The notes beneath the pieces were generated by a model. It made no database searches and was not told the origin of the DNA. It was given only the letters and a program-made list of their open reading frames with translations. Shown here piece after piece: positions 31,151 through 56,821 of a DNA stretch of 64,000 nucleotides (the stretch's first letter is position 1; the number at the start of each line of letters is the position of its first letter). A program made the translations under genes and the position numbers. The DNA comes from Bifidobacterium vansinderenii (GTDB lineage Bacteria; Actinomycetota; Actinomycetes; Actinomycetales; Bifidobacteriaceae). Location of the stretch: NCBI RefSeq assembly GCF_002234915.1, contig NZ_NEWD01000038.1:62001-126000 (forward strand), written 5' to 3'.

Positions 31151-31197
31151 GTGCTCCCTCCAAGGGAGGGAGCTGTCACGCAGTGACTGAGGGAGGG
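31151..31197 (+). repeat. Two-hairpin intergenic repeat, copy A
   Basis: Starts GTGCTCCCTCC and ends TGAGGGAGGG. Hairpin 1: GCTCCCTCC, loop AAG, GGAGGGAGC. Hairpin 2: GTCAC, loop GCA, GTGAC. Lies between the ends of the convergent tyrA and tetR genes. Confidence 0.9.
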
Positions 31198-31218
31198 ATG
31201 CACTGTCAAAAGCTCTCC

Positions 31219-31818
31219 CTAGCTCAGCAGGTCCGCCGGCGCCAGCGTACGCCCGCGATCGATGATCGTGGCGATGGTTTCGGGCGACTCCTCGCATCCG
31301 CGCTTGAGCCACAGCCAGATGACGGCGGTGAGCGACGCCGCAAGCATCTCCCTCGCATAGACCGAGGGGATGTCGTCGCGGCCGGGTTTCTTGCCCACCT
31401 TCTCCGCCTCGATGAGCAGCAGTTCGGTGGTGATGTCCTTGGTGCGGTTGTACAGCTGCATGTCGTTGCCGCTGTGGGAGATGGCGTCGAAGAACGCGAA
31501 GTCGTTCTTGATGTAGCGCAGGCCTCCAAGCAGGGCCATGTACGGGATGAGCTGGCCTTCGGGGCCGGACGTCTGCTGGTGGAGGGGCGCGGAGCCCGGA
31601 CTGAGCATGATCTGCGTCAGATCGCTCATGGCGTTGGCGAGCAGCTGCTGGCGCAGATCGAACTTGTCGGTGTAGTGCGTGTAGAACGTGCCGCGGTTGA
31701 TGTGCGCCTCGCGGGCGAGATCGCTGACGGTCATGGCGTCGAATCCCTTGGCGTTCGTCAGCGTGATGAACGCCTCCTTGATGGCGCCTTCGGTGCGTGT
31801 GTTCCTGCGTTGTACCAT
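31219..31818 (-). CDS. TetR/AcrR-family transcriptional regulator
   Basis: 199 residues. The N-terminal helix-turn-helix is clear: RRNTRTEGAIKEAFITLTNA, GFDAMTVSDLAREAHINRGT then FYTHYTDKFDLRQQLL (TetR_N with the HINRGTFYTHY recognition helix). The C-terminal 130 residues are the effector domain. ATG 31818 is preceded by AAGGAGAGCCC; a longer frame to 31875 has no support. A palindrome at 31910-31931 lies about 90 bases upstream, where an autorepressor would bind. No exporter is adjacent, so its other targets lie elsewhere or are absent. Confidence 0.9.
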   Translation of the reverse strand: MVQRRNTRTEGAIKEAFITLTNAKGFDAMTVSDLAREAHINRGTFYTHYTDKFDLRQQLLANAMSDLTQIMLSPGSAPLHQQTSGPEGQLIPYMALLGGLRYIKNDFAFFDAISHSGNDMQLYNRTKDITTELLLIEAEKVGKKPGRDDIPSVYAREMLAASLTAVIWLWLKRGCEESPETIATIIDRGRTLAPADLLS

Positions 31819-31909
31819 GGGCTCTCCTTGCGGTCGACTGCGGACAGACCGGTCCGTCCGCAGTCCTTCGTGCATGTGTTTCGGACCAGCCTATCACTGA
31901 CCATAATCA

Positions 31910-31931
31910 ACACGTTGTTCGTATAACGTGT
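31910..31931. promoter_or_regulatory. Palindrome upstream of tetR, candidate operator
   Basis: ACACGTT (31910-31916) and AACGTGT (31925-31931) are perfect inverted copies with an 8-base spacer, a typical TetR-site size. Confidence 0.55.
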
Positions 31932-31940
31932 GTGAGGAGG

Positions 31941-32201
31941 TCATGCGCGTCGGACGGGGAACTGCGGGCGTTCGGGAACCGGCTTGAGCCGTACGATGCT
32001 GGCCGCGTCGACGGACACGATCTCGGCCTTTCGTCGTCCGTTCGCCGATTCGTCGCGCAGCATCGTCAACGTTCGTCCGTCCCATCCGGTGACGTGCCCC
32101 ACGTAGTCGCGATACTTTTCCCGCCCGTCGTGCTCGTCCACGCCGATGAGGGTGCGCACCACGATGCGTGCGCCGGTCGGAATATGCTTCGGTAGGATCA
32201 T
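31941..32201 (-). CDS. Small SH3-like barrel protein of unknown function
   Basis: 86 residues, MILPKHIPTGARIVVRTLIG at the start and IVSVDAASIVRLKPVPERPQ near the end. The pattern (GARxVVR, WDGRTLTMLRD, V..AxIVxLKPVPERP) resembles the short SH3-like domain that precedes some actinobacterial GNAT acetyltransferases, but here no acetyltransferase follows, so it is free-standing. No good ribosome binding site is seen before ATG 32201. A longer frame upstream is a shadow of the DASS gene. Function unknown. Confidence 0.6.
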   Translation of the reverse strand: MILPKHIPTGARIVVRTLIGVDEHDGREKYRDYVGHVTGWDGRTLTMLRDESANGRRKAEIVSVDAASIVRLKPVPERPQFPVRRA

Positions 32202-32395
32202 GGTTTCGAGTGTAATCGTCGGTTCGATGTCGTCGAATGCAGATCGGCGATCAATGTCAACGATGTGATTTGCGTCACATCGATCGGTTGCCATCGGTTT
32301 CCTCGAGGTGCCGTAACCCGGGCAGGAGTAACGTGAATACCGATTGGTGGGAAGCCCTGCTCCGGACCAGAATCCCGGATGCCAACGGGGATGAG

Positions 32396-32433
32396 AAAAC
32401 CTCTTCGCGAACAATGATGTGCGAAGAGGTTTT
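32396..32433. terminator. Bidirectional terminator
   Basis: AAAACCTCTTCGC (32396-32408) and GCGAAGAGGTTTT (32421-32433) form a perfect 13-bp stem with A-run and T-run on opposite sides. On the minus strand it lies 31 bases after the DASS carrier stop. Confidence 0.88.
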
Positions 32434-32464
32434 TCTTTGTGTAGGTCCGATTGCTCCGGATCCG

Positions 32465-33940
32465 TCACCACAGGCCGATGATCTTCCACCAGCCCATGCC
32501 CACGGTCAGCCAGATCGCCACCGTCACGATGCCGCACAGGAAGCCGATCTTCAGGAACTCCGGCGTCTTGAGGTAGCCGGCGCCGTAGATCAGTGCCGCC
32601 GGACCGGACGCGTAGTGCGTCATGGCGCCGATCAGGCCGGTGGCGCAGCCCAGCATCAGCGCGGAGGCGACCGGGGGAGCGCCGGCGGCCACGGCCACGC
32701 CGAGGAACAGCGTGTACAGGGCCACCGCCTGGGCCAGTTCGGCGGCGAACATGTAGTGCATCAGGAAGTAGCAGACGGTGAGCAGAGCGAGCACCGCCAT
32801 CCACGGCATGCCCGAGGTGGCGTCGGCGATCATCTCGCCGGCCCATTCGGTCACGCCCAGCTCGTTGAGCGGCGTGGCCATGCCCACCAGCACGCCGAAG
32901 AAGATCAGCGTGGACCATGCCGACTTGTTGGCCGCCATGTCCTGCCAGCTGATGATGCCGGTGGCCAGCAGTACGGCCACGCCCAGGAACGCCACGGTGG
33001 TCGCATTGATGCCGGTCATGGAGCCGGTGGCCCACAGCACGAGCATCACCACGAACGTCGCCGCCATGATCCACTCCCGCATGCTCAGACGTCCCAGCTG
33101 CTTCAGTTCGTCACGGGCGTCGGACTGGGCGGACGGCACATGCTTGATCGTGGGCGGGTACACCTTGTACACCAGCGCGGGGATGATCAGCAGACTCAGC
33201 ACGCCGGGCACGATGCCGGCCAGCGCCCACGTGCCCCAGCCGATCGTCACATTGCTGTCGGCGGCGAGCTGCACCACCACCGGGCCCGCGGCCATGGACG
33301 TGACGAACATGGCGGAGGTGATGGCGTTCACGTTGTTCGCCGTCACGGCCAGGTACGCGCCGATGCGGCGACGGGATTCGTCGCTCTCCGGCGTGGACTT
33401 CTGCACGTCGCTGATCGACGTGATGATCGGGAACAGGATGCCGCCCAGTCGTGCGGTGTTCGACGGCGTGGCCGGCGCCAGCAGCAGGTCGGCCGCCGAC
33501 AGGCCATAGGAGATGCCGAGCGTGGATTTGCCGAGCAGACTGATGAACACCAATGCCACACGACGGCCCAGTCCGGTCTTCACGAATCCCTGGGCGATGA
33601 AGAAGGCCGCCACGATCAGCCAGATTGAGGCGCTGCCCAGACCGGAGAACGCCGCCGTCTTCGGATCCATCGTTCCGGTGAGCATCGCCGCCGTCAGCCC
33701 GATGATCGCCACCGCGGCCGTGGGCAGCGGCTGCAGGATCAGGCCGAGGATCGTGCCAAGGAAGATCGCCAGCATATGCATGGCCTGTGGTTCGAGTCCG
33801 TCCGGTGCGGGAACGACGTAGATCGCAACGGTGACGGCCACGCAGATCGCCGCCTTGATCAGACGCGCCGGTTCGAAGGCCGTCCTCGACGTGTCTTTGG
33901 CGGTCCGTGCGGCGGTGTTGATGCTCGCTGCTGCTGCCAT
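32465..33940 (-). CDS. DASS/SLC13-family dicarboxylate transporter (probable malate uptake)
   Basis: 491-residue inner-membrane carrier with about 11-13 helices. The repeats with hairpin-tip motifs are visible (SAADLLLAPATPSNTARLGG in the first half, matching the Ser-Asn-Thr substrate motif, and ALMLGCATGLIGAMTHYASG in the second), as in CitT, YflS and SodiT-type 2-oxoglutarate/malate translocators. ATG 33940 follows AAAGGAGCACATC; translation from 34036 adds an unrelated head. It is divergent from a malolactic/malic enzyme gene and shares a regulatory region with it, which points to malate or a similar C4 acid as substrate. Confidence 0.87.
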   Translation of the reverse strand: MAAAASINTAARTAKDTSRTAFEPARLIKAAICVAVTVAIYVVPAPDGLEPQAMHMLAIFLGTILGLILQPLPTAAVAIIGLTAAMLTGTMDPKTAAFSGLGSASIWLIVAAFFIAQGFVKTGLGRRVALVFISLLGKSTLGISYGLSAADLLLAPATPSNTARLGGILFPIITSISDVQKSTPESDESRRRIGAYLAVTANNVNAITSAMFVTSMAAGPVVVQLAADSNVTIGWGTWALAGIVPGVLSLLIIPALVYKVYPPTIKHVPSAQSDARDELKQLGRLSMREWIMAATFVVMLVLWATGSMTGINATTVAFLGVAVLLATGIISWQDMAANKSAWSTLIFFGVLVGMATPLNELGVTEWAGEMIADATSGMPWMAVLALLTVCYFLMHYMFAAELAQAVALYTLFLGVAVAAGAPPVASALMLGCATGLIGAMTHYASGPAALIYGAGYLKTPEFLKIGFLCGIVTVAIWLTVGMGWWKIIGLW

Positions 33941-34034
33941 GATGTGCTCCTTTACACGAAAGATTGGTGGCCCGCCGCGGCATCCTTGTGGCGACGGGCT
34001 ATGCACCCGAGCATAGAAATCTGTGAACTGCCTC

Positions 34035-34132
34035 ACAAATAACGAATGACAATATGGGTGCGACTCACCGTGCCATATGTCGGGATCGTTGCGATGTCAG
34101 GCGTGTCGTGCATATAAACAGGACTTATTTGT
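34035..34132. promoter_or_regulatory. Shared divergent promoter region with mirrored operator boxes
   Basis: TTATTTGT occurs on the plus strand at 34125-34132 and, inverted as ACAAATAA, at 34035-34042. Each copy lies exactly six bases after a -10-like box: TATAAA (34113-34118; -35 TTGCGA at 34089-34094, spacer 18) for the enzyme gene, and TATTGT (minus strand, 34054-34049) for the carrier gene. Same spacing at both promoters suggests one regulator blocking both. Confidence 0.65.
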
Positions 34133-34215
34133 AGAGCGGTCGGCGGCTTCCTAATTTGGGAGACATCAACCGGGCAAGGACGCCCACGCCGTTCCAAGAA
34201 AAGAGGATGATCGAC

Positions 34216-35838
34216 ATGACCGGATTCGCCACTCTGAAGGACTCCTTTGTCAACAAGGGCATCGCCTACACTGCCGATGAACGCGTGGCCGCGGACGTCG
34301 ACGGCCTGCTGCCCGCCGCGGTGCAGTCGCTCGACCTGCAGGAACAGGCCATGTACGCACGATTCCACAGCCTTGACAAGGACATTGAGAAGCGCCTGTA
34401 CCTGATGGGCGTGTGCCGTGAGAACCGTCGCCTGTTCTATCACGGCATGGCCAAGCATCTGACCGAATACATGCCGATCGTCTACGCGCCCACCGTGGCC
34501 CAGTCGATCCAGCGCTACGACGAGTTCTACTTCGGATCCGACGTGGCCTACGTGTCGATCGAGCATCCCGAACGCATCAAGGACGCGCTGCGCCAGTACG
34601 CTCAGGGTCGCGACATCGACCTGATCGTCGCCACCGACGGCGAGGGCATCCTCGGCATCGGCGACTGGGGCGCCCAGGGCGCGGAGATCCTCACCGGCAA
34701 GCTCGCCGTGTACACCGCCGCCGCAGGCATCGACCCCGCCCGCGTGCTGCCCGTCATGATTGACGTGGGCACCGACCGTCAGGAGCTGCTCGACAACCCG
34801 CACTACGTGGGCAACCGCTTCCCGCGCGTCCGCGGACAGCGCTACGACGACTTCATCGAAGCGTTCGTACGCGACAGTCTGGAACTCTACCCGGACGCGC
34901 TGCTGCACTGGGAGGACTTCGGCCGCCCGTGCGCCGCGCCGATCCTGGAACGCTACCGTCACGATGTGCTCACGCTCAATGACGACATTCAGGGCACCGG
35001 CGTGACCGTGCTCGCCGCCCTCGTGGCCGCCCGCCGCATCGCCGGCACGAGCTACGACGACACGCGCATCCTCGTGTTCGGTGCAGGCACCGCCGGCGTG
35101 GGCATCGCCGACCAGCTCGTCGACGACATGGTGCTCGAGGGAGGCATGGACCGCGCCGACGCCATGAGCCGCGTGGCGCTTGTGGACCGTTACGGTCTGA
35201 TCCTCGCCGGTCAGGAAGGACTGACCGAAGGCCAGGCCAAGTACGCGCACGATCCGGCCGAATTCGCCGGTCTTGACGACATCACCGATCTGGCCGCCGT
35301 GGTCGACGCGTTCAAGCCGTCCGTGCTCATCGGCACCTCCACCCGTCCCGGCGCATTCAACGAGCAGGTGGTCCGCGCCATGGCCTCCCACGTGGAACGC
35401 CCGCTGATCTGCCCGATCTCCAACCCCACCGAACTGTCCGAGGCCAAGGCCGCCGATGTGATCCGCTGGACCGAAGGCCGCGCGTTCGTGATCACCGGCA
35501 CCCCGTCCGCCCCCGTGGAGTACAACGGCGTGACCTACCACATCGGCCAGGGCAACAACGCGCTCATGTATCCCGGCATCTGCTTCGGCGCGATCGTCGG
35601 CAAGGCCCGACTCATCAGCGACCGCATGCTGCTCGCCGCCGCACACGCCATCTCCGGCATGATCGACGTGAACGAGCCCGGCGCCGCCGTTCTGCCGCCC
35701 GTCTCGTCGCTCACCGAGATCTCCCGCCGCGTGGCCATCGCCGTGGCCGAGCAGGCCATCGCCGAAGGACTCAACCGCGAGCCGGTGCCGGACGTGCCCG
35801 CCGCGGTGGAGGCCAACACCTGGCATCCCGAAGCATAG
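34216..35838 (+). CDS. Malolactic enzyme / NAD-dependent malic enzyme
   Basis: 540 residues. Converts malate to lactate plus CO2 (malolactic) or to pyruvate plus CO2 (malic). The whole chain follows lactic acid bacterial MleS closely: FVNKGIAYTADER near the start, MPIVYAPTVAQSIQRYDE, DLIVATDGEGILGIGDWGAQ, LTLNDDIQGTGV, FGAGTAGVGIADQL and ISNPTELSEAKAADVIRWT. Sequence reading alone cannot separate the two activities. ATG 34216 is nine bases after AGAGG; ATG 34207 touches that site. Context (divergent carrier, downstream LysR) resembles mleR-mleS-mleP loci of lactic acid bacteria, favouring malolactic conversion. Confidence 0.9.
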   Translation: MTGFATLKDSFVNKGIAYTADERVAADVDGLLPAAVQSLDLQEQAMYARFHSLDKDIEKRLYLMGVCRENRRLFYHGMAKHLTEYMPIVYAPTVAQSIQRYDEFYFGSDVAYVSIEHPERIKDALRQYAQGRDIDLIVATDGEGILGIGDWGAQGAEILTGKLAVYTAAAGIDPARVLPVMIDVGTDRQELLDNPHYVGNRFPRVRGQRYDDFIEAFVRDSLELYPDALLHWEDFGRPCAAPILERYRHDVLTLNDDIQGTGVTVLAALVAARRIAGTSYDDTRILVFGAGTAGVGIADQLVDDMVLEGGMDRADAMSRVALVDRYGLILAGQEGLTEGQAKYAHDPAEFAGLDDITDLAAVVDAFKPSVLIGTSTRPGAFNEQVVRAMASHVERPLICPISNPTELSEAKAADVIRWTEGRAFVITGTPSAPVEYNGVTYHIGQGNNALMYPGICFGAIVGKARLISDRMLLAAAHAISGMIDVNEPGAAVLPPVSSLTEISRRVAIAVAEQAIAEGLNREPVPDVPAAVEANTWHPEA

Positions 35839-35858
35839 GCCTTTCCTCGGTCTGATTC

Positions 35859-35930
35859 AAGCCTCCCCGCATCCTTCCGCGTCCTCCACGTACAATGGCT
35901 GGAGAACAACGGCGGAAAGCGGGGAGGCTT
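35859..35930 (+). promoter_or_regulatory. 12-bp inverted repeat enclosing the LysR promoter and hiding its ribosome binding site
   Basis: AAGCCTCCCCGC (35859-35870) and GCGGGGAGGCTT (35919-35930) are perfect inverted copies 48 bases apart. The second arm contains GGGGAGG (35921-35927), the ribosome binding site of the LysR gene; the loop holds a -10-like TACAAT (35892-35897). In transcripts coming from the upstream gene the site would be paired. Confidence 0.65.
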
Positions 35931-35935
35931 TGCCT

Positions 35936-36907
35936 ATGGCGTCGATCGACAACGTGCGCGACATGGAACTGTTCCAGCTCGTCGCGGAACTCGGCAGCTT
36001 CACCGACGCGGCGGCCGCAGCCCACGTCTCCCAGCCCACGGTGTCACTGGCGGTCAAGCGACTGGAACAGCGACTCGGCGCCACCCTGGTGGAACGCCAT
36101 CGATTCGGGGCCAAGGGCGGCATCTCCCTGACCGAGGCCGGACTCGTGGTCATGCGGCACACGGCGTCGATCCTCGGCGAACTCGACCAACTGTCCGAGG
36201 AACTGCAGGCGGCACGGCAGACGAGCCGATACAACGTGGGACTGCCTCCCATCATCTCCGCCTACCTGCTCGGCGCCGACTCGCTCGACACGCTCGCCCA
36301 CCGTCTCGGCGGACAGGTGGACGTGCAGTCCGTGGGATCGCGGCGACTCATGCGGCAGATCGAACGGCACGCCGTAGACTTCGGCGCCGTGGCCAGCGTG
36401 GATCAAGCGCCCAGCGTCGGCGGCATCCAGACGTTCCGCATCGCATCGTTCCCGTTCGTGCTCGCCTACGCACCGGGCAATCCGCCGCAAGGACTGGCCG
36501 CAGTAGGGGAGCGGACGGTCTTCGACTTCTCCGATGCCACGCTGGTCGACACCCTGCGGTTCGTCACGCTCGGCGACGACTTCGTCCACTCCAAGGCCGC
36601 CACCGCGTTCCTGCGCTCGCACGTGGACACCACACGGCTCATCGAAGTGTCCGACGTGAACACCATGAAGGCGATCATCACATCAGGCCTGGCCGTGGGC
36701 CTCATGGCCTCGGTGGCCGTCGACCACGACGACCGACTGGCGTCGATGCCGGTCGTCGGAGTGAACCTGCCCGACTTCGACGTCTACGTGTTCAACGACG
36801 AGACCCGCGAGGCCGCAAATCAGGAGCGCGGGCTGGACGAACACGCCCCGGAGCCCCCATCGCAGACCTTCCTCGACATCATCGGCGAGCATCTGTCCCG
36901 GAAATAG
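35936..36907 (+). CDS. LysR-family transcriptional regulator
   Basis: 323 residues. The winged helix-turn-helix spans about residues 8-66: MELFQLVAELGSFTDAAAAA, HVSQPTVSLAVKRLEQRLGA and LVERHRFGAKGGISLTEAG. The remainder is the periplasmic-binding-like co-inducer domain (from about 95). ATG 35936 lies eight bases after GGGGAGG. It directly follows the malolactic/malic enzyme gene, as MleR accompanies mle genes, so it most likely activates that enzyme and the carrier with malate as co-inducer (inference). Its expression may be limited by the hairpin at 35859-35930. Confidence 0.88.
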   Translation: MASIDNVRDMELFQLVAELGSFTDAAAAAHVSQPTVSLAVKRLEQRLGATLVERHRFGAKGGISLTEAGLVVMRHTASILGELDQLSEELQAARQTSRYNVGLPPIISAYLLGADSLDTLAHRLGGQVDVQSVGSRRLMRQIERHAVDFGAVASVDQAPSVGGIQTFRIASFPFVLAYAPGNPPQGLAAVGERTVFDFSDATLVDTLRFVTLGDDFVHSKAATAFLRSHVDTTRLIEVSDVNTMKAIITSGLAVGLMASVAVDHDDRLASMPVVGVNLPDFDVYVFNDETREAANQERGLDEHAPEPPSQTFLDIIGEHLSRK

Positions 36908-36936
36908 ACGGCCTGGGGCGTGACAAAGAAGAGCGG

Positions 36937-36987
36937 GTGCTCCCTCCAAGGGAGGGAGCTGTCACGCACAGCGTGACTGAGGGAGGG
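36937..36987 (+). repeat. Two-hairpin intergenic repeat, copy B
   Basis: Hairpin 1: GCTCCCTCC, loop AAG, GGAGGGAGC. Hairpin 2: GTCACGC, loop ACA, GCGTGAC; ends TGAGGGAGGG. Followed at about 36998-37014 by an inverted fragment CCCCTCCCTCAGTCACC. Confidence 0.9.
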
Positions 36988-37051
36988 ATGCAAGTCACCC
37001 CTCCCTCAGTCACCGGAGAACATCCTGACCTTCAGCGACCGAAGGGTCCGA

Positions 37052-39169
37052 TCACTCCTCACGATCCGCATACCGGGACAGCAGCGCGTCGGCAAGCGCG
37101 TCAAGCTCCTCGTCCGTGTAGTCGCGGTCCGCGTCGAGCACGATCTCGTCGTCCGGCCCACCGTTAAAATTCACGCCGGCAAGATCGGCGACATCATGCA
37201 CGCCATCATCGCCGACGGTCAGCGGCGTGCCATCGGATGAGTACACGCGCACATCGTCCGAATCGTCCACGTCCGAATCGTCCACGGTGCTCGGAGCGAC
37301 AGGATCGTCCGCGCCCCCGTCATCGTCGGAGTCCGCGTCATCGCCATGATCGTCGTCCGGCTCGTCGTCGTACAACCGCACCAGATCGCCGAACGCCAAC
37401 GGCAGATGCGCCGCCACGTCGCCGGCGCGAATCGGCAGCCCCAACGTTCCCGTGACCGCATCGTCCGACACCGACTCCGGCTCCATGGCATGCAGGAACG
37501 CAATCGGATTCCCGCCGTCATAGATCACCGGCTCACACAGACCCGACTGCGTCGAAGCGGAGGCCATGGCCGCCGCCAGACCATGAATGTAGGCGCCCAC
37601 CGCAGCATAGATGGCCGTCTGATCGGGCAGCTTCTCCAGCGTCGCCGCATTCTGCGCCATCAGCGCACCCAGCGTACCGGCCAGCACGTCACCCGCGCCG
37701 GCGCTCGCCAGCCAGGCCGGAGCCGAACCGGACACGAACGTCTGCACATGGCCCTCGCCGTCATCGCCCACCACCACGGTCACCGCACCCTTGAGCAGCA
37801 CGGTCGCACCGGTAAGCTCCCACGCGCGAGTCGCCCAGACAAGCGGCTCCGCCATCACCTCGTCGGCGGTCACATCCTCATCACGCTCGGAGATGAGCCG
37901 GGCCAATTCGCTGGCATGCGGGGTGATCAGCACCTGCGGCACGCACGACTCGGGCAACAGATCAAGCGCACCGGCATCCACCACGATCGGCGGCATCTCG
38001 TCGCTGCCCTCCTCATCCACGGCATAATGGGCGAGCAGCGCGGCGATGCGCTTGCGCTGCGGATCCATATCGCCATCATCCGGTCCGGCAGGCACGCCCG
38101 AACCCACCACCCAGGACTGCACATGACCCTTGCCCATCACGGCCTCCGGCACGCTGCGCAACACCATGTCCTGCGCACGCACCGGACCCACATAGCGGAT
38201 CATGCCCACATTCGCGCTCGCCGCCGCCTCGCTCGACAGTACGGCCGCACCCGGGTATTCGTCCGAACCGGTGACCAGACCCACCACGCCGCGCGAATAC
38301 TTGGCGTCGTTGACATGCGGCAGACGAATCGCCTGCGCGGCGGTACGACGGGTGACCGCCTCCACGGCCGGGGCGAACGGCTCGGTGTCGAATCCGAAGT
38401 CCACCAGTACCTGACGGCCGCACACGTACGTGGCCGGCGGCAGCAGATCACACGGCTTCAACGCGCCGAACGTGATCGTCACATCGGCGGGAATATAGGG
38501 GCCGGGCAGCGTGCCGTCGTTGATACCCACGCCGGACGGCGTATCCACGGCCAGCACGAGCGGGAACTCGTCGCCGCCGCGACCGTGCGGCAGGGCGATC
38601 GTGTCGGGCAGTTCGCCGTTCTCTCCGACCTCGGCGGCGATATGCGCGGGAATGCCCCGCAACGCGCCGTTCAGCCCGATGCCGGTCATCGCGTCAATCA
38701 CCAGATGCGAGGTCTCGATCACGCCGATCGCGTCATCGAACAGGTCGGCGGCCTCCTGCTCGTCCTCCGGACCCGCGAATCCGGGAATGTCGGCGTCGGG
38801 GTCCAGCACGATCACCTCGCCGCCCTCGGCGCGCAGCGCGGCGAAACCCTCCTCGTGCAGACTGCGTCCCACAGCCACCACGGTCACCTCAACGCCGTCG
38901 CGCGCCAGCTCGGCCGCGGCGAACAGACCGTCACCGCCATTGTCTCCGCCTCCGGCCAGCAGCACAATGCGCGCGGTGTCGGGGGAGACGTGGGCACGGG
39001 CCATCATCACACGCGCGGTCATGGCGGTCGCGGACGCGGCCATGCGCATCAGCGGCACGCCGTCATCAAGCAGAGGCCTCTCCATCGCACGCACATCATC
39101 CGAAGTGAATGCTGCGGACTTGAACTCGTCCTCCAGCTCGGCGTCGTCATCGAACAACATCGACATCAT
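37052..39169 (-). CDS. nnr: Bifunctional NAD(P)H-hydrate epimerase / ADP-dependent dehydratase
   Basis: About 705 residues; repairs damaged NADHX/NADPHX in the cytoplasm. N-terminal epimerase domain (about 15-260: FTSDDVRAMERPLLDDGVPL, LLAGGGDNGGDGLFAAAEL, VIDAMTGIGLNG) and C-terminal ribokinase-like dehydratase (about 290-585: YSRGVVGLVTGSDEYPGAAV, VLITPHASELARL, ATVLLKGAVTVV, WLASAGAGDVLAGTLGALMA). The last 120 residues are an Asp-rich, low-complexity tail (several DDD and DSDD runs) not found in most homologues. ATG 39169 is chosen nine bases after GGAAGG; other starts up to 39211 are possible. Confidence 0.92.
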   Translation of the reverse strand: MMSMLFDDDAELEDEFKSAAFTSDDVRAMERPLLDDGVPLMRMAASATAMTARVMMARAHVSPDTARIVLLAGGGDNGGDGLFAAAELARDGVEVTVVAVGRSLHEEGFAALRAEGGEVIVLDPDADIPGFAGPEDEQEAADLFDDAIGVIETSHLVIDAMTGIGLNGALRGIPAHIAAEVGENGELPDTIALPHGRGGDEFPLVLAVDTPSGVGINDGTLPGPYIPADVTITFGALKPCDLLPPATYVCGRQVLVDFGFDTEPFAPAVEAVTRRTAAQAIRLPHVNDAKYSRGVVGLVTGSDEYPGAAVLSSEAAASANVGMIRYVGPVRAQDMVLRSVPEAVMGKGHVQSWVVGSGVPAGPDDGDMDPQRKRIAALLAHYAVDEEGSDEMPPIVVDAGALDLLPESCVPQVLITPHASELARLISERDEDVTADEVMAEPLVWATRAWELTGATVLLKGAVTVVVGDDGEGHVQTFVSGSAPAWLASAGAGDVLAGTLGALMAQNAATLEKLPDQTAIYAAVGAYIHGLAAAMASASTQSGLCEPVIYDGGNPIAFLHAMEPESVSDDAVTGTLGLPIRAGDVAAHLPLAFGDLVRLYDDEPDDDHGDDADSDDDGGADDPVAPSTVDDSDVDDSDDVRVYSSDGTPLTVGDDGVHDVADLAGVNFNGGPDDEIVLDADRDYTDEELDALADALLSRYADREE

Positions 39170-45736: not shown

Positions 45737-45788
45737 GTGCTCCCTCCCGGGGAGGGAGCTGGCCGGCGAGAGCCGGTCTGAGGGAGGG
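45737..45788 (+). repeat. Two-hairpin intergenic repeat, copy C1
   Basis: Hairpin 1: GCTCCCTCC, loop CGG, GGAGGGAGC. Hairpin 2 has changed completely yet still pairs: CCGGC, loop GAGA, GCCGG. Ends TCTGAGGGAGGG. Confidence 0.9.
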
Positions 45789-45807: not shown

Positions 45808-45860
45808 CCCTCCCTCTGTCACGACACAATCGTGACATCTCCCTCCCACGGAGGGAGAAC
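45808..45860 (-). repeat. Two-hairpin intergenic repeat, copy C2 (inverted)
   Basis: Read on the minus strand: hairpin 1 is TCTCCCTCC, loop GTG, GGAGGGAGA, so the outermost pair changed from G-C to T-A on both sides; hairpin 2 is GTCACGA, loop TTGTG, TCGTGAC. It faces copy C1 across 19 bases. Confidence 0.9.
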
Positions 45861-47772: not shown

Positions 47773-47813
47773 CAGAGTCTGGTAATGGCGCTGCCGTGAC
47801 GATACGCGTGACT

Positions 47814-47879: not shown

Positions 47880-48009
47880 TTGGCCGATACGATGTGCTGT
47901 TTTCCGCTATTGCGGAAAATGTTCCACCTCATCCGTCCGGCTATGCCGGACACCTTCCCCTCAAGGGGAAGGCGGCACAATACCATGCAAGCTCATCGGC
48001 AACGCCGAT
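47872..48009 (+). repeat. Array of five perfect hairpins in a 367-base gene-free stretch
   Basis: Within 47773-48139, which has no credible gene, five perfect stems follow one another: ATCGGCC/GGCCGAT (47872-47888), TTTTCCGC/GCGGAAAA (47900-47919), GTCCGGC/GCCGGAC (47935-47951), CCTTCCCC/GGGGAAGG (47953-47972) and ATCGGC/GCCGAT (47995-48009). Loops are 3-4 bases. The block 47922-47973 has the same order as the dispersed repeat when read on the minus strand (G/C-rich hairpin, TGTC-type hairpin, ATGAGGTGG end), but a different sequence. Confidence 0.85.
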
Positions 48010-48139: not shown

Positions 48140-50653
48140 GTGGCACAGCAGATCACGATGCCCGATGTACGGATGACGGGACTCACCGGCGAACAGGTGA
48201 GCAAACGCGTCATGCAGGGCGACATCAACATCGCCAAGGACAAATCCTCCAGGTCGATCGGACAGATCATCCGATCCAACGTGTTCACGCTGTTCAACGC
48301 GATCATCGCCGTGGCCATGGTCATGGTATTGCTTACCGGTCAGTGGCGCGACTCCGTGTTCGGCTTCGTGATCATCCTCAACACGGGCATCGGCATCATC
48401 ACCGAACTCAAGGCCAAGCGCACGCTCGACAAGCTGTCGATTCTTGTGGCGTCTACGTATCTGGTGCGCCGCGACGGCATCGACCAGGAGATCGCCCACG
48501 ACCGCATCGTCAAGGACGATCTGCTGTGGGTGCGCGCCGGCGACCAGGTGCCCGCCGACCTGGAGATCCTGAAGACCTGGGGCCTGGAACTCGACGAATC
48601 CATGCTCACCGGCGAATCGCGCACCGTGCGCAAAAACGTCGGCGACACCGCGTACTCGGGAGCCACCGCCGTATCCGGTCTCGCGCTGGGACGCGTCACC
48701 GCGGTGGGGGAGCGCAGCTACGCGGCCACGCTCACCGCACAGGCCAAGGTGTACAAGAAGACGCACTCCGATCTCAACGCAGGCATCAACACCATCCTCA
48801 AGTTCATGACGTTCCTCGTGGTGCCGCTGTGCATCCTGCTCATCTGGACGCAGCTCAACACCGTGGGCGGCTGGCATGCGGCGCTCGCCACCGGCGCCTG
48901 GCGGCAGGCCGTGGTCTCCGCCGTGGCCGGCGTGGTCGGCATGATCCCCGAAGGGCTCGTGCTGCTCACCTCGCTGAATTTCGCCGTGGCGGCCATGCGA
49001 CTCGCACGAAAGAACACGCTCGTGCAGGAGCTCGAATCCGTGGAGACGCTGGCCCGCGTGGACGCGCTCAACCTCGACAAGACCGGCACGATCACCGACG
49101 GTGGCATCGCCTTCGACCGCCTGATCATGCTCGACGAGCCTGACAGTGATGCCGTTGATTCAACGAACGAACAAAACAAGAAGAAGCATGACGCCGCCCG
49201 TCATGCCGCCGAACAGGCGCTGTACGATCTCGCCAACGAGGAGCAGCCCAACGGCACCGGTCGCGCCATTCTCGCCGGACTGCGCGAGAAGGGCGTCAGC
49301 GCAAGCAGGATCGCCGAACGCGTGCCGTTCTCGTCGGCACGCAAATGGAGCGCCATCACAACGAACGATGGCGTGACATGGTACATGGGAGCGCCGGAGG
49401 TCGTGATCGCCGCGCTCAACGACACGTACTCCGACGTACTGAAGCAGGCGAACGCATGCGCGGCGCAGGGGAGTCGCGTGGTGCTGCTGGCACGGACGGC
49501 GGCGGAGATCCCCTCCGAGGATGGCAATGAACCGACCCTGAATCCGAACGCGGTCCCCGTCGCACTGGTGGTGTGCACGGAACGCATCCGCCCCGATGCG
49601 GAGAAGACCCTCGCATGGTTCCGCGAGCAGGGGGTACGCTGCCGCATCATCTCCGGCGACAATCCACGCACCGTGGCTGCCATCGCCGGCAAGGTGCGGC
49701 TGACCGGCGACCAGGCCCCACGATACATGGACGCGCGCGAACTGCCCGACGTGAACGACCTCGACGCGCTCGCCGACGCCCTTGAGAATGTGGACGTACT
49801 CGGCCGCGTGCTGCCCGACCAGAAGAAGGCCATCGTCCAGGCGCTGCACAAACGCGACCACGTGGTCGCCATGACCGGCGACGGCGTCAACGACACGCTC
49901 GCCCTCAAGGAGGCCGACCTCGGCATCGCCATGGGCAACGCCGCCCCCGCCACCAAGGCCGTAGCCCAGGTGGTGCTCGTCGACTCCAAATTCTCCCACC
50001 TGCCCGACGTGGTCGCCCGCGGACGCCAGGTCATGGCTAACATGGAACGCGTGGCCAGCCTGTTCCTCGTCAAGACCGTCTACTCGGCCATCATCTCCCT
50101 CGGCGTGGTGCTCACCGCCATGCCCTACCCGTACCTGCCGCGCCACATCACCTACGTGGGCGCGCTCACCATCGGCGCACCCGCGTTCATCCTCGCGCTC
50201 GCGCCCAACACGCGCCGGTACATCCCCGGATTCCTCAAACGCGTCGTCGCGTTCGCGCTGCCCGGCGGCATCGCCACCGGACTGTCCGTGCTGCTCAGCG
50301 CATGGATCGTGCCGCGCGTGATGGGCTGGAACCTCGCCAGCCCCAAGGATCTCGAATCCCTGCGTGCCACCAGCGCGATCATCCTGTTCCTCATGGGCGT
50401 GTTCGTGCTCTCCCGCGTGGCGCGACCGCTCAATTCATGGCGTGGCGGGCTCGTCGCGTTCTTCGCCGCATGCGGCGTGATCGGCATGTTCATCCCGTTC
50501 GTCGCGAACTTCTTCGCCCTCATCATCCCCACCGGCGCCACGTTGATCGCCACGGGTGCCGCGCTCGTCATCGCCGCGCTCATCTTCGTGGTCTGCATCT
50601 GGGGCGTCCCAAAGATCGGGCGCATTATTACACACGAAACAAAAACACGCTAG
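48140..50653 (+). CDS. P-type cation-transporting ATPase (CtpE-like)
   Basis: 837-residue membrane pump. The actuator motif is MLTGESRTV, the phosphorylated Asp is in NLDKTGTITDG, and the hinge is MTGDGVNDTLALKEADLGIAMG. The fourth-helix motif is GMIPEGLVLL rather than the CPC of heavy-metal pumps, and there is no N-terminal metal-binding domain, which fits the CtpE-type Ca2+ transporters of actinobacteria. Ion specificity is inference. GTG 48140 is used after GGGAAAGG. It follows the hairpin array and is 41 bases before aconitase. Confidence 0.9.
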   Translation: MAQQITMPDVRMTGLTGEQVSKRVMQGDINIAKDKSSRSIGQIIRSNVFTLFNAIIAVAMVMVLLTGQWRDSVFGFVIILNTGIGIITELKAKRTLDKLSILVASTYLVRRDGIDQEIAHDRIVKDDLLWVRAGDQVPADLEILKTWGLELDESMLTGESRTVRKNVGDTAYSGATAVSGLALGRVTAVGERSYAATLTAQAKVYKKTHSDLNAGINTILKFMTFLVVPLCILLIWTQLNTVGGWHAALATGAWRQAVVSAVAGVVGMIPEGLVLLTSLNFAVAAMRLARKNTLVQELESVETLARVDALNLDKTGTITDGGIAFDRLIMLDEPDSDAVDSTNEQNKKKHDAARHAAEQALYDLANEEQPNGTGRAILAGLREKGVSASRIAERVPFSSARKWSAITTNDGVTWYMGAPEVVIAALNDTYSDVLKQANACAAQGSRVVLLARTAAEIPSEDGNEPTLNPNAVPVALVVCTERIRPDAEKTLAWFREQGVRCRIISGDNPRTVAAIAGKVRLTGDQAPRYMDARELPDVNDLDALADALENVDVLGRVLPDQKKAIVQALHKRDHVVAMTGDGVNDTLALKEADLGIAMGNAAPATKAVAQVVLVDSKFSHLPDVVARGRQVMANMERVASLFLVKTVYSAIISLGVVLTAMPYPYLPRHITYVGALTIGAPAFILALAPNTRRYIPGFLKRVVAFALPGGIATGLSVLLSAWIVPRVMGWNLASPKDLESLRATSAIILFLMGVFVLSRVARPLNSWRGGLVAFFAACGVIGMFIPFVANFFALIIPTGATLIATGAALVIAALIFVVCIWGVPKIGRIITHETKTR

Positions 50654-50694
50654 AACTGACGTGTTAATGATTTCATAAAAATCACGGAGGCCGT

Positions 50695-53394
<2,700 letters not shown>

Positions 53395-53411
53395 CGCATC
53401 CGCCGAAACGA

Positions 53412-53459
53412 AGCACAGCGGCCGTCTCTCCTCAGTCCGGGGGAGACGGCCGCTGTGCT
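53412..53459. terminator. 17-bp hairpin between convergent genes
   Basis: AGCACAGCGGCCGTCTC (53412-53428) and GAGACGGCCGCTGTGCT (53443-53459) pair perfectly. No T-run, but very stable and correctly placed between aconitase and the response regulator gene. A fragment of the dispersed repeat (GTGCTTCCTTCCAGGGAGGG, 53465-53484) follows. Confidence 0.65.
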
Positions 53460-53528
53460 ATCTCGTGCTTCCTTCCAGGGAGGGATTCATCTTCTCCGGG
53501 AAGACGTTCCAAGCTTTGCCGTCACGCA

Positions 53529-54290
53529 TCATCCTGCCTCCGGCAGATCCGCCCGCTCCACCAGTCGCGCCAGCTGGATCCGACTCATCGCGAGTTTGTC
53601 CGACGCGCTCGACAGATGCGCCTTGGCGGTGCGCTCGCTGATGAACATCCGCCCGGCGATCTCCTGATTCGTCAGTCCATCCGCGGCCAGCACCACCGTC
53701 TCGCGCTCCCGCTCGCTGAGCGTGCCCAGCAGCCGACGCGCCTCATCTCTGCGAGCCAATGGTCTGCGCCGATTGAGATCCTGCAGCAGCTGCCGCTGGC
53801 TGGCCGGATTGAACTGCGGTGCGCCCGTGCAGGCGCCGAGAATCCGCCGGATGATCTCCTCCGGCGCGTCCGTCTTCGACACGAACCCCTCCGCGCCCGC
53901 TTCGGCGGCGCGTTCCACCGTGTTCGACGGCGACAGCGACGTCAGAATCAGCACGTGCGGGGGAGAGGGCAGAGCCCTCATACGTGCGGTTGCCTCGATG
54001 CCGTCGCCATCTGGCATGGCGATGTCCATGAGCACTACATCAGGTCGCTCGACGCGCGCACGTTCCACGGCCTCGACACCATTGGTCGACGTGGACACCA
54101 CCGTGATCCTTCCATCCGAATAATCGTTGAGGATCAGCGACATCGCCTGACAGATCATCGGATCATCGTCGACGATGCTCACCGTGATCGGCCTGACCGG
54201 TGACGAATGCACGGCATCGGATTCGTCGGGGGACGATGACGATGGCGTGGGGGAGTGGGTGTCGGCGTTGGCTGAGGTCATGCCTCTCAT
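53529..54290 (-). CDS. NarL/LuxR-type response regulator
   Basis: 253 residues. After a 30-residue Ser/Asp-rich head comes the receiver domain (about 35-155) with acidic pocket IVDDDP and phospho-acceptor Asp89 in VVLMDIAMPDGDG; Lys in FVSKTD completes it. The LuxR helix-turn-helix is at about 185-245 (LSERERETVVLAADGLTNQE, IAGRMFISERTAKAHLSS). ATG 54290 overlaps the stop of the histidine kinase gene (ATGA), so the pair is coupled. Its targets are unknown. Confidence 0.93.
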   Translation of the reverse strand: MRGMTSANADTHSPTPSSSSPDESDAVHSSPVRPITVSIVDDDPMICQAMSLILNDYSDGRITVVSTSTNGVEAVERARVERPDVVLMDIAMPDGDGIEATARMRALPSPPHVLILTSLSPSNTVERAAEAGAEGFVSKTDAPEEIIRRILGACTGAPQFNPASQRQLLQDLNRRRPLARRDEARRLLGTLSERERETVVLAADGLTNQEIAGRMFISERTAKAHLSSASDKLAMSRIQLARLVERADLPEAG

Positions 54291-55750
54291 CGTATCCGGT
54301 TGAATGGAAGACGGAAGTCAAGATGGAAATCATTGCGTTCGTCATACCCGTACTGGCAGTCTCCGCCGACGGCGAGAACGCGAGCCTTCAGTCCGGGCAG
54401 ACCATTGCCCCCGCCTTTGTCTGCGTTGTTCCCGTCCTCTGCCATCGTGCCGTCGCCATGATCGATCAGACCGTCTCGCTCCATGCCGACCGGCACGGCG
54501 ACGCCCGCGGTGTTGAACACGGTCGGATTGGTGAATCGCACGTTCACGCCGGTCCTCGGCTCGGCGGAGATCTCCAATGCGACACGCGCCCCCGGCGCAT
54601 GCCGTCGCGCATTCGTCAGCCCTTCCTGAATGCCGCGAAACGCGATCTTGCCGATCTCCACGTCCAATAAGCCGAGCTCGCGAATGTCGATCCACGTGTC
54701 CAATGTCATCCCCGCATCACGCGCATCGTCGATTACCGCGTACAGCGCCTCACGAGTCAATGCGGTGTCGGAGTCCGGCATCAGCAACACCTGCGCCTGC
54801 TGCGGATGCCGTAGCATGTCGATGATGCTGTGCGCCTCGTCCAATGCCCCCGCAGCCTGTCGTCGAATGTCTCCGGCACGTTCGGCCAGCCGGACGAGAT
54901 CCTGGCCTTCTTCCGCATTGGTATCCGTTCCCGCATACTTCGGATCCCGGCTCAGCTTCAATGCCTCCGCCTGCAGCGCACTCGCGTTCACCGCGATGAG
55001 CGACAGGCTGTGCGCCAGCGTATCGTGTGCCTCGGCCGCCACGGCATCCGCGAACCGTTGTGTGTTGAGATCGTTTTCCAATACATTCGCGCGGTTGCGT
55101 TCCACATCCATCCGTACGTCGGCGGCATGTGCGTACGCCCGACTGCGTAGGTGCAGGCCCGAGAGTATCGCCGCTGCGAATGTGCAGATCGACCAGACCA
55201 CCGCCGCCACGACGATCGACGACAGATCCGAGTTCACCACGACCGGCACGCCGTCGACACCCGTACCGGGCTCCGCAAACAGACGATGCCACAGTGAATA
55301 ATCCGCAGGACGGGCGATGTCCCGAGCGTGCGCCACGACCATTACGATCAGACTTGCGGCGGTACACGCGCCCAACGTCTTCCGGTCACTGCGCCGGGCC
55401 CACACCCCGCATAGTCCGAACAGGCTGACCGCGGGACTGAACGGCAGCAGCAGCACCGTCGCCGATGCCGCCAGTGACACCAGTTCGGGACGACGTTCGC
55501 GCCATCGCAGCATGATCGGCGTCACGAAGGCCAGCAGCAGTCCCACCGCGGTCCACAGATAGCCGAGCTGCATGCCCATGGCCTCGAAATACGACGACGT
55601 GTAGGCGTCCTCGGCAAGATTCATCATGATGGCGCAGACGATCATCACGACCGTCCATCGACGGCGGGCCGGAACCGGGCAGTCGGGGCGGGATTCGGAT
55701 TCATGCCGGTCTGGATTCGTAGGAACTGCGGGAGGTGTCTGCGTCGTCAT
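54287..55750 (-). CDS. NarL-class sensor histidine kinase
   Basis: 487 residues: about six membrane helices (30-50, 62-80, 90-118, 125-142, 175-200) with short outside loops, then a HisKA_3 dimerisation domain with phospho-acceptor His242 in EAHDTLAHSLSLI, and an HATPase domain with IQEGLTNARRHAPGARV (N-box) and NGLPGLKARVLAVGG (G-box). It has no large sensor domain, so it may sense the membrane itself or a partner protein. Partner of the coupled response regulator. ATG 55750. Confidence 0.92.
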   Translation of the reverse strand: MTTQTPPAVPTNPDRHESESRPDCPVPARRRWTVVMIVCAIMMNLAEDAYTSSYFEAMGMQLGYLWTAVGLLLAFVTPIMLRWRERRPELVSLAASATVLLLPFSPAVSLFGLCGVWARRSDRKTLGACTAASLIVMVVAHARDIARPADYSLWHRLFAEPGTGVDGVPVVVNSDLSSIVVAAVVWSICTFAAAILSGLHLRSRAYAHAADVRMDVERNRANVLENDLNTQRFADAVAAEAHDTLAHSLSLIAVNASALQAEALKLSRDPKYAGTDTNAEEGQDLVRLAERAGDIRRQAAGALDEAHSIIDMLRHPQQAQVLLMPDSDTALTREALYAVIDDARDAGMTLDTWIDIRELGLLDVEIGKIAFRGIQEGLTNARRHAPGARVALEISAEPRTGVNVRFTNPTVFNTAGVAVPVGMERDGLIDHGDGTMAEDGNNADKGGGNGLPGLKARVLAVGGDCQYGYDERNDFHLDFRLPFNRIR

Positions 55751-55946
55751 AATACCTGAAGCATACGGTCGCGCTCACGACAACGCCATTGTCCTCATCG
55801 GCACGATCAGCCTGTCCGAACGGGCAAGCAGAACGGTCCGTTCGGACACTGACGGGACTTTGCCGATTCCCGTACGGTTGTCCTCGTAAACGATCGCTCG
55901 TCGACGACCATGACGCTCGCCGACGCATTCGGAAGAGAGGCACATC

Positions 55947-56555
55947 ATGACCCAGCCCACCCAAGGAAGCCCCCAACCGGCACAGCCACAGCAGCCCGTT
56001 CCCCAGATGACTCCGCAGCAGATGCCACCGCTCCAGCAGCCGCCGCAGCCGAAGAAGAAGCCGATCTTCAAACGCTGGTGGTTCTGGGTGCTTATCGTGA
56101 TCGTGCTGATCATCGGCATCAGCAACATGAATGGCGGCAGCTCGTCAAACTCCGATACGAACAGCACATCACAGTCGCAGTCGGCACAGTCCGGTTCCGC
56201 ATCAAGCGGCGGCGCCGCCGAACAGAAAAAGAGCGAGGAGCCGTCCGTACCCGCCGACTACAAGTCCGCGCTCCGTCAGGCGGAAAGCTATGCGAACACC
56301 ATGCACATGTCCAAGCAGGGCGTGTACGACCAGCTGACCAGCGAATACGGCGGTCAGTTCTCCGCCGAGGCTGCGCAGTACGCCGTGGACAATGTCAAGG
56401 CCGATTGGAATGCGAACGCGCTCGCCAAGGCCAAGGACTATCAGAAGAGCATGGCGATGTCTCCCGAGGCGATCCGCGACCAGCTGACCAGCGAATACGG
56501 TGAAAAGTTCACCGCAGACGAAGCCAACTACGCCGTCGAACACCTCAACGATTAA
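55947..56555 (+). CDS. Membrane-anchored Ltp-repeat (HTH-like, PF07553) surface protein
   Basis: 202 residues. A Pro/Gln-rich N-terminus (1-33) precedes one membrane helix (about 44-60: WWFWVLIVIVLIIGISNM), a Ser-rich linker to about 95, and two Ltp repeats: YKSALRQAESYANTMHMSKQ with VYDQLTSEYGGQFSAEAAQY, and LAKAKDYQKSMAMSPEAIRD with QLTSEYGEKFTADEANY. The repeat type is named for the prophage TP-J34 lipoprotein that blocks DNA injection by other phages. It lacks a lipobox here. ATG 55947 follows AGAGAGGCACATC. It stands between two two-component systems. Confidence 0.85.
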   Translation: MTQPTQGSPQPAQPQQPVPQMTPQQMPPLQQPPQPKKKPIFKRWWFWVLIVIVLIIGISNMNGGSSSNSDTNSTSQSQSAQSGSASSGGAAEQKKSEEPSVPADYKSALRQAESYANTMHMSKQGVYDQLTSEYGGQFSAEAAQYAVDNVKADWNANALAKAKDYQKSMAMSPEAIRDQLTSEYGEKFTADEANYAVEHLND

Positions 56556-56587
56556 TAGGATCGAGGCGAAAGCCCGAGAAATCAAGA

Positions 56588-56627
56588 GATTCTGCCGGAA
56601 CACCGTTCAATGGGTTCCGGCAGAATC
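56588..56627 (+). terminator. Hairpin after the Ltp gene
   Basis: GATTCTGCCGGAA (56588-56600) and TTCCGGCAGAATC (56615-56627): perfect 13-bp stem, 33 bases after the stop, no T-run. Confidence 0.6.
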
Positions 56628-56638
56628 AGGTGTGTGTT

Positions 56639-56689
56639 CCCTCCCTCAGTCACGCTTTGCGTGACAGCTCCCTCCCCCGGAGGGAGCAC
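56639..56689 (-). repeat. Two-hairpin intergenic repeat, copy E (inverted)
   Basis: On the minus strand: GCTCCCTCC, loop GGG, GGAGGGAGC; then GTCACGC, loop AAA, GCGTGAC; ends TGAGGGAGGG. Lies directly after the Ltp hairpin in a 336-base gene-free stretch (56556-56891). Confidence 0.9.
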
Positions 56690-56770
56690 GCTAGTGTTGA
56701 GCATGTGCGCGCCCTCCACGAAAGGGAGATGAGGTACGGCCCTTGCTGCGTGGCACGTTCAGACACCCAT

Positions 56771-56821
56771 GTGCTCCCTCCGAGGGAGGGAGCTGGCCGA
56801 CGCAGTCGGGCTGAGGGAGGG
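56771..56821 (+). repeat. Two-hairpin intergenic repeat, copy F
   Basis: Hairpin 1: GCTCCCTCC, loop GAG, GGAGGGAGC. Hairpin 2: CCGAC, loop GCA, GTCGG. Ends CTGAGGGAGGG. Faces copy E across 81 bases. Confidence 0.9.

What the first reader, a model, noticed from the sequence alone, without database searches (positions are those of the whole stretch)
31151..56821. Family of dispersed two-hairpin intergenic repeats with compensatory base changes
Six near-complete copies of 47-53 bp lie at 31151-31197, 36937-36987, 45737-45788, 45808-45860 (inverted), 56639-56689 (inverted) and 56771-56821, with fragments near 31106, 36998 and 53465. All share a hairpin of GCTCCCTCC against GGAGGGAGC, a linker, a second hairpin and the end TGAGGGAGGG. 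Hairpin 2 is GTCAC/GTGAC, GTCACGC/GCGTGAC, CCGGC/GCCGG, GTCACGA/TCGTGAC or CCGAC/GTCGG, so sequence varies while pairing is kept. In the copy at 45808 the closing pair of hairpin 1 changed on both sides (G-C to T-A). That argues for selection on structure. The GAGGGAGGG end could also compete for the CCCTCC arm, giving two alternative folds. It resembles REP/BIME elements or a small mobile element; no REP-associated transposase is in the window.
Basis: seen in the sequence. Interest (0 to 1): 0.85.

Follow-up and report, generated by a model that had tools for sequence, protein, structure and literature searches.

The report
Two-hairpin DNA repeats forming triplexes
A short DNA repeat scattered between the genes of a Bifidobacterium appears to be kept for its ability to fold, as single-stranded DNA, into a hairpin wrapped by a third strand, and look-alikes with different sequences but the same fold occur in distant gut bacteria.

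Summary
All six copies are where stated, and they belong to a family with 191 hairpin-1 sites in this 3.1-Mb Bifidobacterium genome and over 200 in B. callimiconis. Most copies examined are intergenic, often in inverted pairs.

The 3' tail (GAGGGAGGG) is the mirror image of the purine arm of hairpin 1 (GGGAGGGAG). Across 48 distinct arms, mainly from bifidobacteria and Clostridia, the tail follows its own arm by the antiparallel-triplex code (G over G-C; A or T over A-T) far beyond tails swapped between arms. Two further samples (80 and 40 loci) repeat this. Hairpin 2, which covaries strongly, bridges second and third strands; its loops are mostly C(GNA)G, a DNA mini-hairpin signature.

I read it as an intrastrand DNA-triplex repeat: the principle of E. 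coli TMECO (Holder et al. 2015), with a variable hairpin in the third-strand loop, in BIME-like pairs. It is probably a non-autonomous mobile or selfish element recognised as folded single-stranded DNA. The enzyme is unknown; no Y1 (REP-type) transposase was found in this genome. Triplex formation and mobility are inferred, not measured.

The parts
31151..31197 (+). copy a, type A (G-C closing pair, T in tail), short hairpin 2
   Evidence: absent from the syntenic site of G001
36937..36987 (+). copy b, type A, between convergent LysR-type and YjeF/Carb_kinase genes
45737..45788 (+). copy c, type A; tail-to-tail pair with d, 19-nt gap
45808..45860 (-). copy d, type B (T-A closing pair, A in tail)
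56639..56689 (-). copy e, type A
56771..56821 (+). copy f, type A; hairpin 2 GAC/GTC here, GCC/GGC at the orthologous site of G001
31106..31116 (+). 5' fragment of a copy
36998..37013 (-). fragment: tail and half of hairpin 2 of an inverted copy
53465..53486 (+). decayed copy (lacks hairpin 2 and tail), complete in G001
12576..12586 (+). 5' fragment of a copy, outside the reported span
47925..47972 (-). copy of a second family with the same two-hairpin plus mirror-tail architecture (CCTTCCCC/GGGGAAGG, hairpin 2, GGATGAGG)

Best explanation
Each copy is a roughly 50-nt DNA element that can fold, on one strand, into an antiparallel purine-motif triplex. Hairpin 1 (pyrimidine arm, tiny loop, purine arm) is the duplex. 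The 3' tail folds back as third strand over the purine arm. Hairpin 2 is a compact bridge between second and third strands. Copies occur singly, or in inverted tail-to-tail (type B facing type A) and head-to-head pairs, mostly downstream of genes and hardly ever between divergent genes. I infer that they are non-autonomous, REP/BIME-like mobile or selfish repeats, recognised and copied as folded single-stranded DNA by a host or element enzyme not yet identified. Shown from sequence: copy number, architecture, Watson-Crick covariation in hairpin 2, arm-to-tail mirror coupling by the Hoogsteen code across families, DNA-type mini-hairpin loops, placement. Inferred: that the triplex forms in cells, that it is the recognised form, and that spread is by transposition.
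For: Mirror tail: GGGAGGGAG against GAGGGAGGG. Outermost triple (5' base - arm base. tail base): G-C.T 97 and T-A.A 44 of 141; in G007's second family G-C.T 11 and C-G.G 12 of 23 rows. 67 rows from the Clostridia sample: at position 6 arm G has tail G in 28 of 28, arm A has A 35, T 3, G 1; at position 7 arm A has T 18 and G 1, arm G has G 36 and A 4, including 5 rows of one genome where the pyrimidine-arm base stays T while arm and tail are both G. Swap test without a tail constraint, 48 distinct arms: 7.02 of 9 against 5.76 for swapped tails, z 10.7, 0 of 300 shuffles; the direct-repeat order needed for Watson-Crick competition is weaker, z 4.7. Second sample, 80 of the 120 loci: arm G to tail G 64 of 71, arm A to A or T 54 of 55 at positions 6-8; the other 40 loci: 7.70 against 6.41, z 8.8. 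Hairpin-2 covariation and two compensated changes among 9 orthologs. C(GNA)G in 128 of 209 triloops and 119 of 152; GNA and GNNA loops are described as making extraordinarily stable DNA mini-hairpins (PMC4686876, passages). 133 of 135 triples in 15 typed E. coli TMECO rows fit the code, and that motif folds as a triplex in vitro by NMR and CD (PMC4666352, parts read). Not overlapping predicted genes: 97 of 110; 1 of 97 divergent, against 45 of 237 baseline spacers.
Against: No biophysics was done on these sequences. Holder et al. found no stable triplex at one chromosomal TMECO site by in vivo DMS footprinting. In the main sample plain mirror identity does about as well as the code (z 9.4 against 10.7 for all 48 arms; 11.5 against 11.0 for 47 purine-rich arms), so there the swap test shows mirror order rather than the exact code; in the two viral-collection samples the code does better than identity. 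The direct order also exceeds all 300 shuffles in the main sample. Family 2 keeps a fixed non-code triple (A over G-C) at one tail position. At positions 8-9, near the loop, the rows are mixed, and inverted pairs there carry C, not T, in 2 Clostridia rows and 2 viral rows. T over a C-G inversion in the purine motif is my recollection; the citation seen concerns the pyrimidine motif. Families are related by descent, so independent arm-tail changes are fewer than rows. 62 of 376 hits score below 8 of 9. No mobilising enzyme was found, and G000/G001 indels at these sites include flanking DNA, so mobility rests on copy number, patchy distribution and presence/absence.
Confidence: 0.62

Rival explanations
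1. The elements act mainly as RNA: transcribed two-hairpin structures at mRNA 3' ends that stabilise or process transcripts, with the tail kept for protein or RNA binding. Rfam's whalefall-1 would be a relative.
For: Placement downstream of genes with almost no divergent spacers. Sub-threshold likeness to whalefall-1, best 29 bits against a gathering score of 37. Hairpin-2 pairing is conserved.
Against: Both orientations relative to co-directional genes are common (33 same, 24 opposite). GNRA is 16 of 97 hairpin-2 tetraloops, while C(GNA)G is 128 of 209 triloops. An RNA role alone does not predict mirror coupling of tail and arm.
Confidence: 0.15
2. A member of the REP/RAYT system: a hairpin moved by a Y1 tyrosine transposase supplied in trans, now lost from this genome.
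For: Copy number, intergenic placement, inverted pairs and arrays as in BIMEs. 12 of 16 element-positive genomes of the Clostridia sample have a Y1 transposase.
Against: None detected in this genome. 118 of 196 genomes of that sample have one anyway, and G060 and G113, with 17 and 29 sites, have no match. Element edges are GTG or GTT in 140 of 143 copies, not GTAG.
Confidence: 0.12
3. The tail competes with the purine arm for the pyrimidine arm, giving two alternative Watson-Crick folds.
For: GAGGGAGGG can pair partly with CCCTCC; direct-repeat likeness exceeds swapped tails (z 4.7, 0 of 300; z 2.5-2.9), which partly palindromic mirror sequences would also give.
Against: The mirror code fits better in all three samples. 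Positions with T in the tail opposite T in the pyrimidine arm cannot pair.
Confidence: 0.04
4. A four-run G-quadruplex (GGGAGGG plus GGGAGGG) is the selected structure.
For: Family 1 has four GGG runs.
Against: Only 138 of 335 elements and 12 of 64 distinct arm/tail cores have four GGG runs. Arms such as GGAAGGAG and tails such as GGATGAGG lack them yet keep the architecture.
Confidence: 0.05
5. No selected structure: hairpins stay paired because replication template switching corrects imperfect palindromes, and copies are neutral debris.
For: Such correction yields compensated stem changes without selection (established idea, recalled). One of nine orthologs shows a one-sided hairpin-2 change to a wobble (98939).
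Against: It does not generate mirror coupling between arm and tail or the GNA loop bias.
Confidence: 0.06

Closest known systems
TMECO / PIT motif of E. coli (intrastrand class II triplex motif; Holder et al. 2015, PMC4666352: parts 1, 3, 4, 5 of the text and part of the discussion read). The paper mentions BoxC structures in a tool comparison; that TMECO and BoxC are the same repeat is my recollection.
   Same: C-rich arm, small loop, G-rich arm, second G-rich strand in mirror order; always intergenic in E. coli MG1655; two types A and B always combined in inverted pairs (5 of 5 in the paper; 21 of 22 tail-to-tail here, though only 18 of 33 head-to-head); uneven counts between close relatives.
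   Different: Arm sequences differ. TMECO was reported from proteobacterial genomes; here Bifidobacteriaceae and the class of an Oscillospiraceae MAG.
REP / BIME with RAYT (Di Nocera et al. 2013, PMC3733652: abstract, outline and a term search)
   Same: High copy number, intergenic, inverted pairs and arrays, between co-directional and convergent genes.
   Different: No GTAG or CGTC tag, two hairpins plus a third-strand tail, no Y1 transposase detected in the genome.
Whalefall-1 RNA, RF01762 (Weinberg et al. 2010, PMC2864571: passages only)
   Same: Hairpin 1, short linker, hairpin 2, G-rich single-stranded tail; by my reading of the consensus printed, 5 of 7 tail positions fit the mirror code.
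   Different: Below the gathering score in all three genomes searched, and at the loose limit used 11 of 14 control genomes also gave hits, none over the cut-off; listed as a probable noncoding RNA from whale-fall samples.

Membership tests
REP/RAYT system | GTAG or CGTC tag at one end | tested here: not met
   143 parsed copies begin GTG (96), GTT (44), ATG (2) or GCG (1) (the parser favoured G[TG][GT], up to 4 substitutions in the hairpin-1 block)
REP/RAYT system | Y1 transposase (PF01797) in the genome | tested here: not met
   0 matches in G000, 5 of 14 control genomes ring; 12 of 16 element-positive genomes have one against 118 of 196 overall
REP/RAYT system | intergenic, inverted pairs or arrays (BIME) | tested here: met
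   97 of 110 not overlapping predicted genes by more than 30%; 22 tail-to-tail, 33 head-to-head and 3 direct neighbours within 250 bp
Intrastrand triplex motif, class II (TMECO type) | Y arm, R arm, then third strand in mirror order by the purine-motif code | tested here: met
Intrastrand triplex motif, class II (TMECO type) | TMECO consensus with 3-nt loop 2 | tested here: not met
   segment between arm and tail is 13-21 nt in the 143 parsed copies and holds a hairpin
Intrastrand triplex motif, class II (TMECO type) | triplex formed in vitro | not testable with these tools
   needs CD/NMR
Whalefall-1 RNA RF01762 | score at or above the gathering threshold of 37 bits | tested here: not met
   best 29 bits; 0 of 3 genomes over the cut-off
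Intrinsic terminator | GC-rich hairpin followed by a T-run | tested here: not met
   0 of 143 with 5 T in 6 after hairpin 1, hairpin 2 or tail; 4 of 143 on the other strand

The most novel reading that the evidence does not exclude
A superfamily of bridged-triplex repeats, spanning at least Bifidobacteriaceae and Clostridia and probably including E. coli TMECO and the presumed RNA whalefall-1, shows three-strand covariation by the Hoogsteen code. That would be evolutionary evidence that a DNA triple helix, as single-stranded DNA, is itself the selected and recognised structure, and it predicts an unknown enzyme that reads this fold and spreads the repeats.
Probability: 0.4. Interest if true: 0.87.

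Novelty: new variant of a known kind. Interest (0 to 1): 0.72.

Why it matters
Whether DNA triplexes matter in living cells is an old open question; in vitro folding says little about selection. Repeat families in which the third strand changes together with the duplex arm give a natural mutational test of the triplex code, and a defined set of sequences for binding, footprinting and pull-down. It would also link several unexplained repeat classes (TMECO, perhaps whalefall-1, two-hairpin intergenic repeats of gut bacteria) by one architecture, and point to an unidentified single-strand-DNA enzyme.

Tried and rejected
Two alternative Watson-Crick folds: disfavoured, since the tail tracks the purine arm better than its complement. 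Intrinsic terminators: not supported. REP/RAYT: rejected as membership. G-quadruplex: not general. Rfam: nothing over threshold on the copies; the only hit of the whole window is an unrelated Transposase-2 RNA. Plasmid and phage collections: no match to the c/d pair at E 0.001. Streptomyces L038 and Devosia L042 hits of the hairpin-1 pattern lack the tail in place. An ortholog scan with a looser pattern gave misoriented calls and was replaced; the 'G000-only' copy at 57991 is a miss of the scan, because its G001 counterpart has a changed arm, and one of the five 'G001-only' elements (108304) matches the decayed window copy at 53465. Insertion boundaries and target-site duplications could not be defined at roughly 86-95% identity. 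Literature: no paper describing these repeats in bifidobacteria was seen in the listings (one search returned none); subscription journals are largely not held.
Full report
OBSERVATION. The six copies are present at the stated places and strands. The window is contig 32, bases 62001-126000, of a 3.11-Mb draft genome in 68 contigs. The larger matches to G001 over the searched stretch are 86-95% identical. The hairpin-1 pattern has 191 sites in this genome and none for the reversed control. A stricter oriented form has 176 sites here and 222 in G001, and none in the other seven of nine genus genomes.

ANATOMY. 143 full copies were parsed from the loci then held (21 from this genome, 122 from G001). 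Type A reads GTG-CTCCCTCC-nnG-GGAGGGAG-C-TG-hairpin 2-C-T-GAGGGAGGG; type B reads GTT-...-A-TG-hairpin 2-C-A-GAGGGAGGG. The outermost triple (5' base, arm base, tail base) is G-C.T in 97 and T-A.A in 44 of the 141 with standard length. Hairpin 1 hardly varies inside the family. Hairpin 2 varies widely: in 64 unique type-A sequences the three best column pairs of the whole element by corrected mutual information are three hairpin-2 pairs, and in 27 unique type-B sequences the two best are.

ARRANGEMENT. Of 22 tail-to-tail neighbours within 250 bp, 21 join a type A and a type B copy, and 18 are 19-26 nt apart. Of 33 head-to-head neighbours 18 are A/B, 14 A/A and 1 B/B; 19 are 12-17 nt apart. 97 of 110 copies evaluated do not overlap a predicted gene by more than 30%, against 19 of 110 random 51-mers. 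Of 97 placed copies 57 lie between co-directional, 39 between convergent and 1 between divergent genes; spacers of 40-800 nt in a sample of 24 loci divide 144, 48 and 45 (genes predicted by a simple script). In the window the neighbours are ordinary genes, e.g. DUF3159 and a tRNA (uracil-5-)-methyltransferase around c/d, aconitase and a response regulator around the 53.4-kb fragment. No T-run follows hairpin 1, hairpin 2 or tail in 143 copies; 4 have one on the other strand.

ORTHOLOGS. In the syntenic stretches of G000 and G001 examined, 9 elements (both families) are shared. Two differ by compensated double changes in hairpin 2: GAC/GTC to GTC/GAC at contig position 14454, and GAC/GTC to GCC/GGC in copy f. 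One (98939) has a one-sided change to a wobble. Copy a is absent from G001; five elements score only in G001, one of which is the copy decayed in the window; no element is seen at the c/d and b sites of G008. Gene conversion between copies could also produce such replacements.

THE TAIL. The tail is the mirror image of the purine arm, which is what an antiparallel third strand needs: G over G-C, A or T over A-T (code as printed in PMC10609763, passages, and in PMC4666352). Three lines test this against the competing-pairing idea. First, other families reach other states: the second family (23 rows from G007) shows G-C.T in 11 and C-G.G in 12, and an Oscillospiraceae MAG has T instead of A over an A-T pair. 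Second, in the class of that MAG (Clostridia, by my taxonomy) 16 of 196 genomes carry the architecture, controls zero. In 67 distinct rows copied from that output, arm G goes with tail G in 28 of 28 cases at position 6 and in 36 of 40 at position 7 (4 have A); arm A goes with A or T in 38 of 39 and with T in 18 of 19. In five rows of one genome the pyrimidine-arm base stays T while arm and tail are both G. At positions 8-9, close to the loop and often unpaired, rows are mixed. Third, a scan with no constraint on the tail found 376 unique two-hairpin hits; 314 score 8 or 9 of 9 by the code. With one element per distinct arm (48 arms), the mean is 7.02 against 5.76 after swapping tails, never reached in 300 shuffles. 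The direct-repeat order needed for Watson-Crick competition gives 5.98 against 5.40, also never reached but much weaker. Plain mirror identity does about as well as the code in this sample (z 9.4 against 10.7; 11.5 against 11.0 for purine-rich arms). The scan required pyrimidine-rich first arms.

REPEAT SAMPLES. In 80 of them arm G goes with tail G in 64 of 71 and arm A with A or T in 54 of 55 at positions 6-8; two inverted pairs carry C, not T; the swap test gives z 7.0, or 4.9 for hits that do not match the search pattern. In the other 40 loci the mean is 7.70 against 6.41 (z 8.8), with plain mirror identity z 6.0 and direct order z 2.5.

DNA RATHER THAN RNA. Hairpin-2 loops are C(GNA)G in 128 of 209 triloops, and GNRA in 16 of 97 tetraloops; in the 80-locus sample C(GNA)G is 119 of 152 triloops. 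GNA and GNNA loops are described as making extraordinarily stable DNA mini-hairpins (PMC4686876, passages). This favours single-stranded DNA as the folded molecule but does not exclude RNA.

WHAT IS KNOWN. The principle is that of TMECO, an intrastrand triplex motif shown to fold in vitro and tied to unstable loci in E. coli, where inverted pairs always join types A and B (PMC4666352, parts read). That paper did not find stable triplex in vivo by DMS. Applied to 15 typed E. coli rows, 133 of 135 triples fit the code; the misfits are two T bases in the arm. The new points here are the covarying hairpin that bridges second and third strands, the arm-tail covariation itself, and the spread: in Bifidobacteriaceae 16 of 151 genomes match a degenerate form, 7 of 9 in this genus and 9 elsewhere, controls zero. 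REP membership fails on tag and transposase. Whalefall-1 is below threshold, best 29 of 37 bits, and weak hits at that loose limit also occur in 11 of 14 control genomes, so it stays a lead.

MECHANISM. Shown from sequence: a conserved three-strand-capable fold, paired placement, avoidance of divergent spacers. Inferred: during replication, repair or transfer the strand is exposed and folds; an unidentified enzyme recognises the fold and copies or moves the unit, perhaps the B-A pair; copies survive where they do least harm, downstream of genes. No enzyme was found and no clean insertion site was resolved.

Noticed in passing
window 47925-47972 (-) and many places in G007, G001, G000: A second two-hairpin repeat family (CCTTCCCC or GCTTCCCC arms, tail GATGAGG) with the same mirror-tail architecture, abundant in a sister genome that has no match to the reported family's hairpin-1 pattern.
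   Followed up: yes
window 21547-21615 (+): Rfam Transposase-2 RNA (RF03015), 86.5 bits against a gathering score of 42.7; function unknown to me, not near the repeats.
   Followed up: no
L036, L072, L093, L094, L097 (Oscillospiraceae MAG): There the listed elements form head-to-head pairs about 50 bp apart with a similar spacer, i.e. tails outward, unlike the tail-to-tail B/A pairs of the Bifidobacterium.
   Followed up: partly
hairpin 2, pair next to the closing G-C, type A copies: 26 of 64 type-A sequences with a 17-nt hairpin 2 have G opposite A there, a recurrent mismatch that could be a protein contact.
   Followed up: no
window 56588-56627: A separate palindrome (GATTCTGCCGGAAC ... GTTCCGGCAGAATC) just upstream of copy e, partly changed in G001.
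   Followed up: no
Viral-contig loci, e.g. L152, L167, L204: Many contigs of the viral collection carry the architecture, some with about ten copies in 12-15 kb; phage or host origin not sorted.
   Followed up: partly
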